Shown here: positions 625 to 6,008 of the stretch, piece by piece
Layout of the letters: the number at the start of each line of letters is the position of its first letter
Numbering within the stretch: position 1 is the first letter of the stretch
Assembly: GCA_001896725.1 (NCBI GenBank)
Contig: MPPA01000036.1
Coordinates: 1-35,070, forward strand
Source: Methanococcoides sp. EBM-47
Lineage (GTDB): Archaea > Halobacteriota > Methanosarcinia > Methanosarcinales > Methanosarcinaceae
Reading direction: 5' to 3'
Length of the DNA: 35,070 bases
Notes under the pieces: model-generated
The model's database searches: none
What the model was told of the DNA's origin: nothing
What the model saw: the letters and a program-made list of their open reading frames with translations, nothing else
Made by a program: the position numbers and the translations under genes

Positions 625-757
625 ATAATGCGAAGATTTTCTCAAAGGCTATAAGGGCTATTTTTGAAGGTCAGCTTCTAACCTTCTTGCGAAATCATCG
701 TATAAAAGTATGTGCACTTGAGCATCCCTGATATTGCTATGTATTGCTATGTTTTGC

Positions 758-786
758 TTGATATTGATAGTGAAATGCTATATAAT
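758..786 (+). promoter_or_regulatory. Sigma-A type promoter of the orphan relB-like gene
   Basis: TTGATA at 758-763 and a consensus TATAAT at 781-786 are separated by exactly 17 bp. They lie about 40 bp upstream of the ATG at 826. The placement rules out the longer reading that would start at 712, since that would begin upstream of the promoter. Confidence 0.7.
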
Positions 787-825
787 AATAGGAGATGTAA
801 GCAATACACGAAAGGAGCTTTTGAA

Positions 826-1095
826 ATGGCACAAGTCAATATTCGCATAGATGATGAGTTAAAGAAAAAAGGCGAAGAACTGTTTAATGAACTTGGAATG
901 AGCTTTTCGACGGCTGTAAGCATATTTGTCAGTCAAGCTGTGCGCCAAGGCGGAATACCGTTTGAGATTACAACCAAAGATGATTTTTACAACCCTGTAA
1001 ATATAAGGCACCTGAAACATTCTATTAAGCAGATGAAGCGAGGCAACGTAGTTGTCAAAACAATGGACGAATTAGAGAAAATGGCCAATGAATAG
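826..1095 (+). CDS. RelB/DinJ-family antitoxin (orphan)
   Basis: This encodes an 89-residue protein with a ribbon-helix-helix N-terminus (MAQVNIRIDDELKKKGEEL). The next segment, LGMSFSTAVSIFVSQAVRQGGIPFEI, is typical of RelB/DinJ antitoxins, and the acidic tail (VKTMDELEKMANE) normally wraps a RelE/YafQ toxin. Such antitoxins bind their own promoter and neutralise a ribosome-dependent mRNA interferase. The start is chosen at 826 because AAAGGAG lies 8 bp upstream and a consensus promoter precedes it. No RelE, YafQ or HigB reading frame follows: the next 90 bp contain only a terminator. It is therefore an orphan here, either a remnant of a type II module or an antitoxin for a toxin encoded elsewhere. 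Confidence 0.85.
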   Translation: MAQVNIRIDDELKKKGEELFNELGMSFSTAVSIFVSQAVRQGGIPFEITTKDDFYNPVNIRHLKHSIKQMKRGNVVVKTMDELEKMANE

Positions 1096-1144
1096 CATAA
1101 CATTAACCCAGTGGTAGGGTTTTCTGCTAAGGCATACGTAAGAT

Positions 1145-1172
1145 TATAGCCCTATCGAAAGATAGGGCTATA
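1145..1172 (+). terminator. Rho-independent-type hairpin after relB-like gene
   Basis: A perfect 12-bp stem (TATAGCCCTATC and its complement) is closed by a GAAA tetraloop and followed by a T-containing tail. It lies 50 bp after the antitoxin stop. Confidence 0.75.
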
Positions 1173-1183
1173 GTTTATAATTT

Positions 1184-1279
1184 TCGAGCCGTTCACTTAT
1201 ATAGCCGCCAACGGTGGGCGGACAATATTTGTCGGGCCGTTCACTTATATAGCCGCCAACGGTGGGCGGACAATATTTT
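1184..1279. repeat. Two tandem copies of a 48-bp repeat with GC-rich hairpin
   Basis: Units at 1184-1231 and 1232-1279 are almost identical. The core from GCCGTTCAC to ACAATATTT (43 bp; 1188-1230 and 1236-1278) is exact. Each copy carries a small GC stem, CCGCC...GGCGG, around a 7-nt loop. The pair sits 77 bp upstream of the interrupted small gene at 1356, so it could be part of its promoter region or a remnant of a mobile-element end. No further copy was seen in the window. Confidence 0.85.
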
Positions 1280-1355
1280 CAGTGTTTTTATTCACTCACA
1301 TTATAGTTCATCAATAGCGATTAAGCAAGTATATTGTCGAAAAAGAGGTGATTAT

Positions 1356-1461
1356 ATGCTTTATTTATCTGGAATTCACGCACTAAACCTGCCTTGTAAC
1401 TTATTAACCTGCGGCGACTGGCATACATTAGGCATTAACTGGGAAAATATAGTCCTTTTAG
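1356..1461 (+). pseudogene. 5' part of small conserved gene interrupted by the IS element
   Basis: AAAGAGGTG precedes an ATG at 1356. The first 35 codons (MLYLSGIHALNLPCN..., with TCGDWH and a WENIVL segment) match a family of about 130-residue proteins of unknown function that I recall from anaerobic Firmicutes. After codon 35 the frame runs into the left end of the IS and stops artificially at 1500-1502, giving a 48-residue chimeric product. The rest of the gene reappears beyond the element at 3347-3639. Joining base 1461 to base 3347 restores one continuous frame (TTA GAA AGC GAT) of about 132 residues. The function is unknown. The family match is from memory; the split is read from the sequence. 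Confidence 0.75.
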
Positions 1462-1478
1462 GAGTGGCGGCGGGAATC

Positions 1479-1498
1479 CTCTCCAATTTATTGGAGAG
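1479..1498 (+). repeat. Left-end hairpin of the IS
   Basis: A perfect 8-bp stem (CTCTCCAA/TTGGAGAG) surrounds the loop TTTA. In IS200/IS605 elements such subterminal imperfect palindromes are bound as single-stranded DNA by the TnpA dimer. It is the partner of the hairpin at 3319-3336. Confidence 0.75.
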
Positions 1499-1594
1499 AT
1501 GAGAGCCGATTTTTAATTACATTGGCTACTATGTGAATATGATAAATATACATAAACACTTGTATTTACACAATATCTATGGTACACTATATGT

Positions 1595-2005
1595 ATGGAT
1601 AAGAATAGCTTAATTCATGCCAGAACATGCGTATATAACGTTAATTATCATATTGTATGGTCGGTTAAATATAGAAAGCCTGTTTTAACTGAAGATATAC
1701 AGGAATTCCTTAAAGACCAGTTTATAAAAATAGGCAATGAAAAGGGATTCTCCATAGCTGCTATGGAGGTAATGCCTGATCATGTCCATGTATTTGCTTC
1801 AGCCCATCCCCAAATTGCGCCTTCCTATATTGTTAAGATGCTCAAGGGCATTAGCGCACGAAGAACGCTGATGCAATTCCCGCATCTTGCACAGCAACTT
1901 TGGAAAGGGCATTTATGGAACTCGTCGTTTTATATAGAGACCATAGGTTCAATATCCGAAGATGCAATCAAAAAATATATCGAACACCAAAAGACAAGGG
2001 GGTGA
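1595..2005 (+). CDS. tnpA: IS200/IS605 family Y1 HUH transposase TnpA
   Basis: The 136-residue protein has the usual length of the IS200-like Y1 transposases, which cut and rejoin single-stranded DNA at the element ends. Visible motifs are the N-terminal strand HIVWSVKYRKPVL and the metal-binding HUH motif in PDHVHVF. The C-terminal helix KKYIEHQ carries the catalytic Tyr, with the Gln four residues later. No inactivating change is seen. The start at 1595 has no good ribosome binding site; a TTTACA/TACACT-like promoter lies just upstream. It precedes tnpB by 4 bp and the two are probably co-transcribed. Confidence 0.92.
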   Translation: MDKNSLIHARTCVYNVNYHIVWSVKYRKPVLTEDIQEFLKDQFIKIGNEKGFSIAAMEVMPDHVHVFASAHPQIAPSYIVKMLKGISARRTLMQFPHLAQQLWKGHLWNSSFYIETIGSISEDAIKKYIEHQKTRG

Positions 2006-2009
2006 AATA

Positions 2010-3341
2010 GTGAGATTAAAGAAAAATGAACCCAACGCAAAACAGAGGGTTATACAATTCGAGTTAAATCCCAATAAAGAACAATACATTATATTAAGCG
2101 CTCTGACATATGCCTCATCAAAGCTCTGGAATGTGGCAAATTACGAGCGAATTACCTGGACAAAAGAAAGCGGCAATCCCTACCCGGACTGGTATGAACA
2201 AAAAGCGAGGCTAAAAGAAAGCTTTTGGTACAAAAACCTGCCATCACAAACGGCCCAGGAAGTGCTCAAACAGCTGGACGAAGCCTGGAATTCATTTTAT
2301 AAGCTAAAAAAGACCAATGGTATAGAAAATCCAAGGCCACCCAGATACAAGCACAGCAACTTCAATATACGGTATCTGAACAAAGGCTTTATTATATCAG
2401 ATGGAGTCATAAGGCTTACAGTACCAAAACAGCAGAAGGTGTATATAAAACAAAAGTATGAACCGGACACAGACTTTCTATATATACGCATACCCGATAG
2501 ATATAAAAACCTTGCCGGCAAAACAAAAGTCATTGAGATAATACCCATACCAAAAAGCAACAGGTATAAGGTTAATATTATCGTCGATTTACCGGCAACA
2601 CAATATCAACAGGATAACGCTATATACATGGCCATCGACTTAGGAATTAACAACCTTATGACATGCTATACATCCAAAGGCAAAAGCATGATTATATCAG
2701 GTAGGCAATTACTGAGCATAAACCGCTACTTCGACAAAAAGATAGCATACTATCAATCGATAACACATGCGCAGCAGGCAGCATCTAAAGCAAAACACAA
2801 AAAGAGCAGCAGGCGTATACAGCAACTATACACAAAACGCAAAAAGCAGGTACATCATCTTCTGCATACAGCCACTAAACAGGTAATAGACTTTGCCGAG
2901 CAAGAAGGTGTGACTGCTATTATTATCGGTGATTTATCACATATTCGTTATGATAAAGACATGGGCAGAATTAACAATCAGAAATTTCACAAATGGCCGT
3001 TTAAGAAAGTAGAAGAACTGCTTGCCTACAAAGCCGCTGACAGAGGTATACATATTGACAAACAAGAAGAGAGCTACACCAGCCAATGCAGCCCATATGC
3101 AACAGAGGTATCAGAAGCGAGCGCCCAAAAGAGCAATCGCAAATACAGGGGCTTATATATAGTAGACAATAAGGTCTATAACGCTGATTGTGTTGGAGCG
3201 TACAATATACTGAAGAAGTATCTGTGTAGGGTTGGCAAACCCAACCCAGCAGTAGTGGCGTTGGACACGCCGGAGATGTACCGATGGGATGGATATAGTT
3301 TCATTGGGAATCCGAAGCTCGCCAATTTATTGGCGATGTAG
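2010..3341 (+). CDS. tnpB: TnpB, RNA-guided nuclease family, atypical RuvC-II
   Basis: From a GTG start at 2010 (AAGGGGGTG ends 5 bp upstream) the gene encodes 443 residues, a normal TnpB length. TnpB proteins use an RNA from the element's right end to cut DNA next to the insertion motif, favouring retention of the element. RuvC-I Asp is D210 (MAIDLGINNL) and RuvC-III Asp is D393 (NADCVGAYNIL). In RuvC-II the usual Glu of the IEDL motif is Gly (IIIGDL, G307-D308). The segment EESYTS (E353/E354) is the best candidate for an alternative acidic residue. The four-Cys zinc finger is absent; only the Cys of YTSQCSP remains. The stop at 3339-3341 lies inside the right end of the element, so the guide-RNA scaffold should overlap the 3' coding part. 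The gene shows no frameshift and may be active. Confidence 0.9.
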   Translation: MRLKKNEPNAKQRVIQFELNPNKEQYIILSALTYASSKLWNVANYERITWTKESGNPYPDWYEQKARLKESFWYKNLPSQTAQEVLKQLDEAWNSFYKLKKTNGIENPRPPRYKHSNFNIRYLNKGFIISDGVIRLTVPKQQKVYIKQKYEPDTDFLYIRIPDRYKNLAGKTKVIEIIPIPKSNRYKVNIIVDLPATQYQQDNAIYMAIDLGINNLMTCYTSKGKSMIISGRQLLSINRYFDKKIAYYQSITHAQQAASKAKHKKSSRRIQQLYTKRKKQVHHLLHTATKQVIDFAEQEGVTAIIIGDLSHIRYDKDMGRINNQKFHKWPFKKVEELLAYKAADRGIHIDKQEESYTSQCSPYATEVSEASAQKSNRKYRGLYIVDNKVYNADCVGAYNILKKYLCRVGKPNPAVVALDTPEMYRWDGYSFIGNPKLANLLAM

Positions 3342-3366
3342 TTCACAAAGCGATGACAGCATTTTT
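3200..3366 (+). ncRNA. Candidate TnpB guide (omega/right-end) RNA
   Basis: Established TnpB biology places the guide-RNA scaffold in the 3' end of tnpB and the right end of the element, with the guide being the flanking DNA just outside. Here that would be scaffold up to 3346, including the hairpin at 3319-3336, and a guide starting AAAGCGATGACAGC at 3347. The 5' boundary is arbitrary. There is no direct evidence of transcription, only position and family knowledge. Confidence 0.4.
3319..3336 (+). repeat. Right-end hairpin of the IS
   Basis: A perfect 7-bp stem (TCGCCAA/TTGGCGA) surrounds a TTTA loop and overlaps the last codons of tnpB. It shares its inner core with the left-end hairpin at 1479-1498, which supports both as TnpA recognition structures. 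Confidence 0.75.
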
Positions 3367-3639
3367 TTGAATTATGGAATAGAGAAAAACCGGACTATAC
3401 CGTTTCATAGAGGCAAATATAATGTCGCAAATCATATAAGAGCTTTACTTGACCTTCTAGCAGAAGGAAAATACAGCATAGCTCAGGGCATGAAGGAAGA
3501 TTATATATGCAATGATATATACACGGAAGAGATTTTCCAAAAAGTATCTTTAATGCAAGAACTTGACAATTGGCCGAATATCGATCGGTTTATGGAGAAG
3601 GAATACGGAATTGAATGGACTGAATTTAATTTATCTTAA
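3347..3639 (+). pseudogene. 3' part of the small conserved gene interrupted by the IS
   Basis: Reading in plus frame 1, this segment continues the family begun at 1356: SDDSIF, NYGIEKN, then YNVANHIRALLDLLAEGKYS, IAQGMKEDYICND, and a C-terminal DRFMEKEYGIEWTEF, ending at TAA 3637-3639. It contributes about 96 residues of the restored protein of about 132. It has no start codon or ribosome binding site of its own. The reading frame has stayed open since the insertion, which suggests that the transposition was fairly recent. Function unknown. Confidence 0.75.
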
Positions 3640-3662
3640 CAAAAAGACTTTTGTATCTCATG

Positions 3663-3887
3663 CTAGATTTCCAATCTTTTTTTGACATCATCAAAAGAAA
3701 TATGCTTAACTTCATTATTTTTAAGTCTTTCTTCATAAGTAAGGATTGCTCTTAAATCAATCTCATCTTCAATTTTTTCTTCCAAAGCTTCTTTCATCAA
3801 AGTAGATAAGGGAACATTTTTGAACTTAGCATATTCCTTGTAAGCTTTGGCTTCATCACTGTTCAATCTAATAGTAATAGTACTCAT
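3663..3887 (-). CDS. Ribbon-helix-helix antitoxin (RelB/DUF6290-like), orphan
   Basis: This 74-residue protein begins MSTITIRLNSDEAKAYKEYA, the beta-strand and helix of a ribbon-helix-helix DNA-binding domain. The LSTLMKEALEEKIEDE helix and the acidic C-terminal tail are typical of type II antitoxins that pair with RelE-type toxins. The ATG at 3887 has AGGTGAGG just upstream. An inverted repeat at 3906-3930 in its leader is the probable operator. No toxin frame follows downstream (3640-3662 is the end of the convergent host gene), so the partner is missing or lies elsewhere. Confidence 0.75.
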   Translation of the reverse strand: MSTITIRLNSDEAKAYKEYAKFKNVPLSTLMKEALEEKIEDEIDLRAILTYEERLKNNEVKHISFDDVKKRLEI

Positions 3888-3905
3888 AAAGACCTCACCT
3901 TTCAT

Positions 3906-3930
3906 GTATACATCGCAACACAATGTATAC
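3906..3930 (-). promoter_or_regulatory. Inverted-repeat operator of the orphan antitoxin
   Basis: GTATACAT and ATGTATAC form a perfect 8-bp inverted repeat with a 9-bp spacer, about 20 bp upstream of the antitoxin start. Ribbon-helix-helix antitoxins usually bind such repeats in their own promoter. The repeat overlaps the stop codon of the hfq-like gene. Confidence 0.65.
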
Positions 3931-4213
3931 TAGTCTGGTTTTGCAGTGCTTGCTGCCTTCTTACTTTTACCAAGAAATTTACTGCTTATTTTTTTGTAGA
4001 TGTCCTGCCCCTTAGGCACTGAAAGCGTAGAAATGGCGCTCTTGTATATCATCTGGCTCTTATCGCCGCAGTCCACGAGTACAGTGAAGTTGTCGAAGTC
4101 TATTATCTTTCCTTTTACAGGTACACCGTTTGCAAGGTATATGGTTATTTGCAGCTGCTTTTTCTTAATTTCGTCGAGAAAAAATCCTGAAGGCTTGCTG
4201 TTTGATTTGTCAT
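3930..4213 (-). pseudogene. hfq: hfq-like RNA chaperone gene with a one-base frameshift
   Basis: The minus strand encodes an Hfq-type Sm-like protein. After GGGAGAGG, the ATG at 4213 reads MTNQTASLQDF. The family reading then continues one frame over as FLDEIKKKQLQITIYLANG, then VKGKIIDFDNFTVLV and MIYKSAISTL, ending with a basic tail at TAG 3932-3930. The break is in an A6 run on the plus strand (4179-4184): one more base would give a continuous 94-residue protein. As written, the ATG frame stops within about 20 codons. In the Sm2 motif the usual Lys-His pair is Lys-Ser (YKSA), and a poorly conserved tail follows. Hfq normally sits beside miaA; here it is alone in an accessory region, so it may be a second copy. 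A homopolymer sequencing error cannot be excluded. Confidence 0.8.
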
Positions 4214-4561: not shown

Positions 4562-4897
4562 TTAATCTGAAACTATTTCTATTTCAGCCGAAACAATATC
4601 AATCACTGTTTGCAATAAATCAAGAGGTAGGCTCTCTACTAGATGATACTGCCGAGAATTAATATCAAGAGCTTTCACGTGTTCACAAAGAACGACACCG
4701 GTTGTAGTTGTGCGGGTATCAAGCGGGACGTGCAAAGGAAATTTGTTATCGGTATTTGTAATCGGGCAGACAATTGCCATGTTAGTCTTATTATTAAAAA
4801 CATCGTTGCTTATGACTACCGCAGGCCTATAACCTGCTTGCTCATGACCGGCTTGAGGAGTGAAATTAACTATAATAATGTTCCCCTGTTTTACCAT
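4562..4897 (-). CDS. mazF: MazF/PemK-family mRNA interferase toxin
   Basis: This 111-residue protein has the MazF fold signature: N-terminal KQGNIIIVNFTPQAGHEQAG, the strand GYRPAVVIS with its conserved Arg, VCPITNT with the conserved Thr, and the later VLCEHVKALD segment. MazF toxins cut single-stranded RNA at short specific sequences and are held inactive by MazE. The length is normal and no motif is missing. The start overlaps the end of the upstream antitoxin by 7 bp, so translation is coupled. Target sequence specificity cannot be read from the protein. Confidence 0.93.
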   Translation of the reverse strand: MVKQGNIIIVNFTPQAGHEQAGYRPAVVISNDVFNNKTNMAIVCPITNTDNKFPLHVPLDTRTTTTGVVLCEHVKALDINSRQYHLVESLPLDLLQTVIDIVSAEIEIVSD

Positions 4898-5142
4898 ATT
4901 TCTCTCCCAACCGATTTACCCCAATCAATTTCTTCTGGTTGGTATTCACCTTTAAAATCAGCAAATAATTCCTTGATAGTTTTATGTTTTTGCTGTTTTA
5001 TATTTGCTTTTTTTATGATAATTTTTCCATCATTAGTAATTATTTCAACCTGTTCATTTTCATGCCAGTTTAATTCATCCAAAATATATTTTGGAACTCT
5101 GATACCGCAGCTATTACCCCATTTATTAATTACAGTAATCAC
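4891..5142 (-). CDS. mazE: MazE-type AbrB/SpoVT-fold antitoxin
   Basis: This 83-residue antitoxin has an N-terminal swapped-hairpin AbrB domain (ITVINKWGNSCGIRVPKYIL, then VEIITNDGKIIIKK) and an acidic, Trp-containing C-terminal tail (ELFADFKGEYQPEEIDW) of the kind that occupies the MazF groove. The start is set at the GTG 5142, with GGGAGG about 8 bp upstream. The longer in-frame reading to 5217 would run through the operator and promoter and is rejected. It is followed by mazF with a 7-bp overlap. Autoregulation through the palindrome at 5162-5187 is likely. Confidence 0.92.
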   Translation of the reverse strand: MITVINKWGNSCGIRVPKYILDELNWHENEQVEIITNDGKIIIKKANIKQQKHKTIKELFADFKGEYQPEEIDWGKSVGREIW

Positions 5143-5161
5143 TTCTAACGCCTCCCTCTGT

Positions 5162-5198
5162 ATATACTTAGTATATACTAAGTATATCTTTTCAGCAA
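5162..5198 (-). promoter_or_regulatory. mazEF promoter with 26-bp perfect palindromic operator
   Basis: The palindrome at 5162-5187 (half site ATATACTTAGTAT) is perfect. On the minus strand a TTGCTG -35 (5198-5193) and a TATACT -10 (5175-5170) are spaced by 17 bp, so the -10 lies inside the palindrome. Antitoxin binding would block RNA polymerase directly. Confidence 0.8.
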
Positions 5199-5253
5199 TG
5201 TTTTTATTTTGTTCCACGAAATTAGCAAATATATAATATAAACCCTTTCTTGT

Positions 5254-5618: not shown

Positions 5619-6008
5619 CTACTGAAATTTCACAAGCCCATCGATAAGGTCAAAGTGTTTGTCAAGCGAATATACGCAAAGATGATTTTTAATCGCCATG
5701 CAAGCTATCACTGCATTGGTAAATGGGATGGCGATACCCTTTTTTCTTAATTCCAGTGAAAAAAAACCTATGTCAGACCAGTCTGATTTCCTGATATCAA
5801 CATATGGTAAAGCCTTTAGGCTTGCAAGAAGTTCCTCCGCCTGTTTCTTATTCTTGACACCATGAATCAGTTCTGCCATTATCGGTCCTGTTATATATGC
5901 GCTGCTGGCATCTATCAGCAAATCTACGGCTTCGCCAATTTGAGCATTGCCGCGAAAATATTCTATCCATATGGACGTATCGATTAAAACCTTACTCTGG
6001 AGTTCCAT
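5619..6008 (-). CDS. vapC: VapC-family PIN-domain toxin
   Basis: This 129-residue PIN-domain ribonuclease has the first catalytic Asp in VLIDTSIWIEYFRG and a Glu in MAELIHG. The C-terminal acidic pair region reads IPFTNAVIACMA...SLDKHFDLI. VapC toxins cleave tRNA or rRNA and are silenced by VapB. The third acidic residue, normally Asp in a DA(L/I)IA motif, is Asn here (N98, AAT at 5717-5715), one transition away from GAT; activity may be reduced. The gene overlaps vapB by 17 bp, the usual arrangement. Confidence 0.9.
   Translation of the reverse strand: MELQSKVLIDTSIWIEYFRGNAQIGEAVDLLIDASSAYITGPIMAELIHGVKNKKQAEELLASLKALPYVDIRKSDWSDIGFFSLELRKKGIAIPFTNAVIACMAIKNHLCVYSLDKHFDLIDGLVKFQ

What the first reader, a model, noticed from the sequence alone, without database searches (positions are those of the whole stretch)
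2010..3341. TnpB with Gly in RuvC-II and no zinc finger: candidate rearranged active site
D210 and D393 are in place, but the RuvC-II Glu is replaced by G307 (IIIGDL) in an otherwise intact gene. An acidic pair, E353/E354, stands in the conserved EESYTS segment. A subset of TnpB proteins related to eukaryotic Fanzors is reported to have a rearranged catalytic Glu. This protein may belong to it, or be catalytically dead.
Basis: partly seen in the sequence, partly recalled or inferred. Interest (0 to 1): 0.65.

Follow-up and report, generated by a model that had tools for sequence, protein, structure and literature searches.

The report
TnpB nuclease with relocated catalytic glutamate
This is a normal-looking, probably working RNA-guided DNA-cutting enzyme of a small jumping gene, whose catalytic glutamate sits in an alternative place already described for a branch of bacterial TnpBs related to eukaryotic Fanzors; the less ordinary point is that this lineage has also lost its zinc finger.

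Summary
Window 2010-3341 encodes an intact 443-aa TnpB with D210, G307 in place of the canonical RuvC-II Glu, E353/E354 in QEESYTS, D393, and no CxxC pairs. It lies with an intact Y1 TnpA in a complete IS200/IS605 element (1462-3346) that splits an AbiEi-like gene just 3' of TTTAG. The RE encodes a conserved, covarying structured RNA ending at the insertion junction. It is not a dead TnpB. Across 37 relatives, Glu at the 307 column and Glu at the 354 column exclude each other and are separated by one fully supported branch. E354 is invariant in the alternative-Glu set, while E353 is D, N, S or T elsewhere. dN/dS is 0.12 against an 82% relative. An AlphaFold model puts E354 directly after the fifth RuvC strand, where Fanzors carry theirs. 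So the catalytic set is most likely D210/E354/D393. This is the 'Ealt, DΦG' TnpB clade of Yoon et al. 2023: a relative of Fanzors, not a pro-Fanzor (DLG not DPG, Y1 not IS607). New here: zinc-finger loss in this lineage separate from the larger zinc-finger-less Ealt clade, a predicted TTTAG TAM, and an ωRNA with a guide pseudoknot. New member of a known kind.

The parts
1457..1461 (+). TTTAG target pentanucleotide left of the element; predicted TAM
   Evidence: TTTAG directly precedes LE in all six copies whose LE could be read: window, L002, L003, L006, L008 and L055, in unrelated flanks
1462..3346 (+). complete IS200/IS605-type insertion sequence, 1885 bp
   Evidence: LE and RE boundaries from comparison of copies and from the split host gene
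1471..1507 (+). left-end imperfect palindrome (GGGAATCC-TCTCCAATTTATTGGAGA)
   Evidence: conserved in five copies; shares GGGAATCC with RE
1595..2005 (+). tnpA, Y1 HUH transposase, 136 aa, with DHVHV and KKYIEHQ motifs intact
   Evidence: PF01797 1.2e-40; NF033573 4.6e-44
2010..3341 (+). tnpB, 443 aa; RuvC D210 / E354 / D393, G307 at the canonical Glu position, no zinc finger
3195..3346 (+). ωRNA (reRNA) scaffold, overlapping the 3' end of tnpB and RE
   Evidence: fold z-score -3.2; 13 pairs with two-sided changes in the consensus fold
3257..3271 (+). ωRNA hairpin GGCGU-UGGAC-ACGCC whose loop (3262-3266) pairs with 3341-3345
3317..3339 (+). right-end terminal hairpin of the ωRNA
   Evidence: 9 pairs, 100% of cells paired, 3 pairs with compensatory changes
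3341..3345 (+). GUUCA, predicted guide-adjacent pseudoknot strand
   Evidence: pairs with loop 3262-3266 in 7/7 copies, one pair varying C-G to U-G
3347..3366 (+). predicted native guide, host sequence 3' of the element (AAAGCGATGACAGCATTTTT)
   Evidence: sequence after RE is unrelated between copies
1356..1461 (+). 5' half of the disrupted AbiEi-like host gene
   Evidence: PADLOC PDLC02284 positions 1-34
3347..3639 (+). 3' half of the disrupted AbiEi-like host gene
   Evidence: PADLOC PDLC02284 positions 37-129; 59% identical to a 136-aa plasmid protein of Megamonas that also matches the 5' half

Best explanation
This is the TnpB of a complete IS200/IS605 element and most likely an active RNA-guided DNA endonuclease. 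Its RuvC metal site is D210, E354 and D393; the glutamate is supplied from the loop right after strand β5 (entering the TNB domain) instead of from β4, where G307 now stands. It binds the ωRNA made from the right end of its own element, whose 3' end is the flanking host DNA, and cuts the empty site (TTTAG followed by the guide match) left after TnpA excises the element, which favours its retention. Shown here: the gene, the Glu swap, its conservation, selection, the element ends, RNA covariation, the split host gene. Inferred: metal binding by E354, cleavage, TAM use, retention of the element.
For: Glu swap: the 307 column is Glu only in the six Ecan relatives, and the 354 column is Glu only in the 31 Ealt ones (alignment; tree, branch support 100/100). 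E354 is invariant while E353 becomes S, N, D or T. In the solved AsCas12f the catalytic-position Glu aligns with G307 and a Pro with E354. Model: pLDDT 83.5, D210 in strand 206-211, G307 in strand 303-308, E354 right after strand 348-353, D393 at the start of helix 392-407; Fanzor's Glu is described on the loop between β5 and the TNB domain (PMC11423790), and SpuFz1 D383/E541/D606 bind two Mg (PMC10432273). The fold matches AsCas12f, ISDra2 and ISFba1 TnpB, and mimivirus Fanzor2. dN/dS is 0.117 for TnpB and 0.081 for TnpA against L002. RE RNA: covariation. The element splits one gene cleanly. ISDra2 precedent for TAM = target site and for the retention role: PMC8612924.
Against: No direct activity data. 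The side-chain distance of E354 to D210/D393 was not measured, because no coordinates were available. pLDDT is lower (block means 67-86) in the 361-390 stretch that replaces the zinc finger. TAM and guide are inferred from only six copies, two of them from one genome. No empty site of this locus was found in relatives.
Confidence: 0.85

Rival explanations
1. Catalytically dead TnpB kept as an RNA-guided DNA-binding protein (TldR-like), with the Glu simply lost at position 307.
For: The canonical RuvC-II Glu is absent; no activity was measured.
Against: Loss of the canonical Glu coincides with an invariant Glu at 354 across a whole clade; both Asp are invariant; the element keeps an intact tnpA and ends, unlike domesticated regulators as I know them.
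Confidence: 0.08
2. E353, not E354, or D308, supplies the third acidic residue.
For: E353 is adjacent and conserved among the closest relatives; D308 stands next to G307.
Against: E353 is S in L006, D in L043, N in L045/L050 and T in L055, and D308 is Y, K, H, L or R in other Ealt members, while E354 never varies.
Confidence: 0.04
3. True pro-Fanzor, i.e. a member of the DPG + Ealt clade ancestral to eukaryotic Fanzors.
For: Ealt; the 82% identical Mahella copy L002 has DPG; the model matches mimivirus Fanzor2.
Against: The window protein has DLG, a Y1 rather than IS607 transposase, Bacillota relatives and no zinc finger; DPG in L002 looks like a single recent change, since its other near relatives have DLG or DMG.
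Confidence: 0.03

Closest known systems
Ealt DΦG clade of TnpBs (Yoon et al. 2023, PMC10711439)
   Same: RuvC-I D-hydrophobic-G, no Glu at the canonical place, Glu just before the former zinc-finger position
   Different: no zinc finger in this lineage; the paper's RegEx for Ealt required CxxC pairs, so members like this one would not be caught by it
ISDra2 TnpB / IS200-IS605 (PMC8612924, PMC10097598)
   Same: Y1 TnpA next to TnpB, palindromic ends, target pentanucleotide, RE-derived guide RNA, same fold
   Different: ISDra2 uses D191/E278/D361 with Glu on the canonical strand, a CCCC zinc finger, and TTGAT instead of TTTAG
Fanzor1/Fanzor2 (SpuFz1; mimivirus Fanzor2 9b0l)
   Same: alternative Glu after β5; similar overall fold (TM 0.51-0.53 to 9b0l)
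   Different: DPG motif, zinc finger, eukaryotic or IS607 context
Zinc-finger-less Ealt TnpBs (EESYTSKCSFLD ... KRIKRGLFRS type, L009-L014, L040-L054)
   Same: Ealt and no zinc finger, same RGLY/NAD frame
   Different: separate fully supported clade; zinc finger apparently lost independently

Membership tests
TnpB RNA-guided endonuclease family (NF040570) | full-length profile match above cut-off | tested here: met
   171.3 bits vs 100, residues 16-403
TnpB RNA-guided endonuclease family (NF040570) | three acidic RuvC residues | tested here: met
   D210, E354, D393 invariant in the Ealt alignments
TnpB RNA-guided endonuclease family (NF040570) | RNA-guided DNA cleavage | not testable with these tools
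   needs biochemistry
IS200/IS605 element | Y1 HUH TnpA and subterminal palindromes, insertion 3' of a short fixed sequence without duplication | tested here: met
Ealt DΦG TnpB clade (Yoon 2023) | D-hydrophobic-G in RuvC-I | tested here: met
   DLG at 210-212
Ealt DΦG TnpB clade (Yoon 2023) | Glu at the alternative and not at the canonical position | tested here: met
   G307 / E354
Ealt DΦG TnpB clade (Yoon 2023) | zinc finger following Ealt (used in their search pattern; not stated to be universal in the clade) | tested here: not met
   no CxxC in the protein; the paper says many, not all, TnpBs carry it
pro-Fanzor / Fanzor | DPG motif together with Ealt | tested here: not met
   DLG in the window; DPG only in L002
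pro-Fanzor / Fanzor | IS607 or eukaryotic transposon context | tested here: not met
   Y1 TnpA upstream
TldR-like inactive TnpB | loss of RuvC catalytic acids | tested here: not met
   all three acidic positions present and conserved

The most novel reading that the evidence does not exclude
Alternative-Glu TnpBs have discarded the zinc finger at least twice, and the metal-free TNB segment (NRKYRGLY...NAD) takes over its role next to the relocated Glu. This would give a family of active, compact RNA-guided nucleases with a structurally different active-site lip, possibly with altered strand order or collateral cleavage. Existing zinc-finger-based search patterns would miss them.
Probability: 0.35. 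Interest if true: 0.5.

Novelty: new member of a known kind. Interest (0 to 1): 0.28.

Why it matters
It shows that missing the canonical RuvC-II Glu does not mean a dead TnpB, and it names the residue (E354) to mutate. It gives a testable compact nuclease with a predicted TAM (TTTAG), guide RNA and pseudoknot. It also suggests that the zinc finger is dispensable in alternative-Glu TnpBs, and that the DPG+Ealt 'Fanzor fingerprint' can arise in unrelated IS200/IS605 TnpBs (L002).

Tried and rejected
Rfam search of 1000-4200 gave nothing at E<=1. Relatives of the host-gene 3' half: none in 99 other genomes, so no empty site was seen. RE DNA search of 238 genomes of the class: only the window's own copy. 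Direct viral-contig scan with P0001: no relatives. E353 and D308 as catalytic residue: rejected on conservation. A TldR-like dead enzyme: rejected. Aligning the L055 right end with the others failed 5' of the terminal hairpin, so it was left out of the pair counts. The profile alignment to ISDra2 is shifted around E278, so the residue mapping of the canonical Glu rests on AsCas12f and on the Ecan relatives. Two key papers (PNAS 2023 TnpB/Cas12 classification; Sci Adv 2023 Fanzor) are not held, so priority on zinc-finger-less Ealt TnpBs could not be checked.

Full report
Observation. The frame 2010-3341 translates into 443 residues without a stop. Cysteines occur only at 219, 360, 394 and 406, so the CxxC...CxxC zinc finger of other TnpBs is absent. 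NCBIfam guided_TnpB, Pfam OrfB_IS605 and Cas12f1-like_TNB all match above their cut-offs.

The element. A Y1 transposase gene (1595-2005) lies directly upstream. Comparison with copies in other genomes (L002 82%, L003/L008 about 60%, L004 62%, L006 50%, L007 62% identical) and a gut-phage scaffold copy (L055, 42%) shows a conserved left end preceded by TTTAG in six of six readable cases, and a right end finishing in GATGTAGTTCAC in the window, L002-L004, L007, L008 and L055, and in GAGTAGTTCAC in L006. The element is therefore 1462-3346. It interrupts one gene: the sequence to its left matches positions 1-34, and that to its right positions 37-129, of the same PADLOC profile labelled AbiEi. 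Both halves also align to one 136-aa Megamonas plasmid protein next to a HipA-domain gene. TTTAG read into AAAGCG continues the frame. Only one copy exists in this genome, and no close copy in the other genomes searched in the family or class, so it looks like a horizontal arrival.

The active site. In an alignment of relatives, proteins with Glu at the 307 column (GLEDL type) have no Glu at the 354 column (DPSYTS, NPEYTS), and proteins with Gly at 307 all have Glu at 354 (EESYTS, DESYTS, SEEYTS). On a maximum-likelihood tree of 37 proteins the two states are separated by one branch with 100/100 support. In 16 alternative-Glu proteins D210, G307, E354 and D393 are invariant, while E353 is not. 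In the solved AsCas12f, the Glu of QMEDL aligns with G307 and a Pro aligns with E354. The AlphaFold2 model (pLDDT 83.5) places D210 on a strand (206-211), G307 on a strand (303-308), E354 immediately after the strand 348-353 and D393 at the start of helix 392-407. This is the position described for Fanzor, on the loop between β5 and the TNB domain (PMC11423790). Foldseek finds AsCas12f, ISDra2 TnpB, ISFba1 TnpB and mimivirus Fanzor2. The side-chain distance could not be measured, because no coordinates are released.

Function retained. TnpB shows dN/dS 0.117 and TnpA 0.081 between the window and L002. The region upstream of the right end folds better than shuffled sequence (z -3.2). Its terminal hairpin keeps 100% pairing with three pairs changed on both sides. 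A 5-bp pseudoknot between a hairpin loop UGGAC (3262-3266) and GUUCA (3341-3345), just before the guide, is kept in all seven copies, with one pair varying. The pseudoknot itself has little covariation and is a prediction. It resembles the guide-adjacent pseudoknot reported for TnpB and Cas12 guide RNAs (PMC10097598).

Mechanism. By analogy with ISDra2 (PMC8612924), where the target pentanucleotide is also the TAM and the RE-derived RNA carries flanking DNA as its guide, this TnpB should cut the donor joint TTTAG-AAAGCGATGACAGC... left after excision and so favour keeping the element. This is inference.

Comparison. Yoon et al. 2023 (PMC10711439) already separated TnpBs into canonical-Glu and alternative-Glu groups, the latter split into DΦG and DPG clades; only the DPG clade, with IS607 transposases and mostly cyanobacterial, leads to Fanzors. 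The window protein is DΦG (DLG) with a Y1 transposase. Its nearest relative L002 has DPG, which looks like an independent change and a caution against using that motif alone.

Zinc finger. The window's clade groups with zinc-finger-bearing L006 (100/100) and, less surely, with L043, while the large zinc-finger-less alternative-Glu group (L009-L014, L040-L054) is a separate clade (100/99). The tree therefore needs two losses if zinc fingers are not regained; L043 is on a long branch. This is the least ordinary feature, and I could not establish whether it has been published, because the main classification paper is not held.

Verdict. Observation confirmed, interpretation partly supported: a rearranged active site with E354, known as a kind, most likely active.

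Noticed in passing
L002 (Mahella MAG) TnpB, RuvC-I: The 82% identical copy has DPG with Ealt, the combination called the Fanzor fingerprint, in a Y1 IS200/IS605 element.
   Followed up: partly
L002, L003, L006 element flanks: Left and right flanks do not read as one gene (for example ArsC-like vs helicase-like in L002; two distant parts of a helicase-like gene in L003), suggesting deletions next to the element or assembly joins.
   Followed up: no
window 1177-1272: Tandem 48-bp direct repeat, two copies 94% alike, with TATATAGCCGCCAACGGTGGGCGGACA, upstream of the disrupted AbiEi-like gene.
   Followed up: no
window 712-1095, 3663-3923, 4562-5217, 5619-6008: Several small genes that look like toxin-antitoxin parts (RelB/DinJ-like, CopG-like, MazE/MazF-like, PIN-domain) cluster around the element; names from reading the translations only.
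   Followed up: no
L055 (gut phage scaffold MT835844.1): Related element with TTTAG left flank and the same right end, but tnpA is shortened by an internal deletion while tnpB is open across the match.
   Followed up: partly
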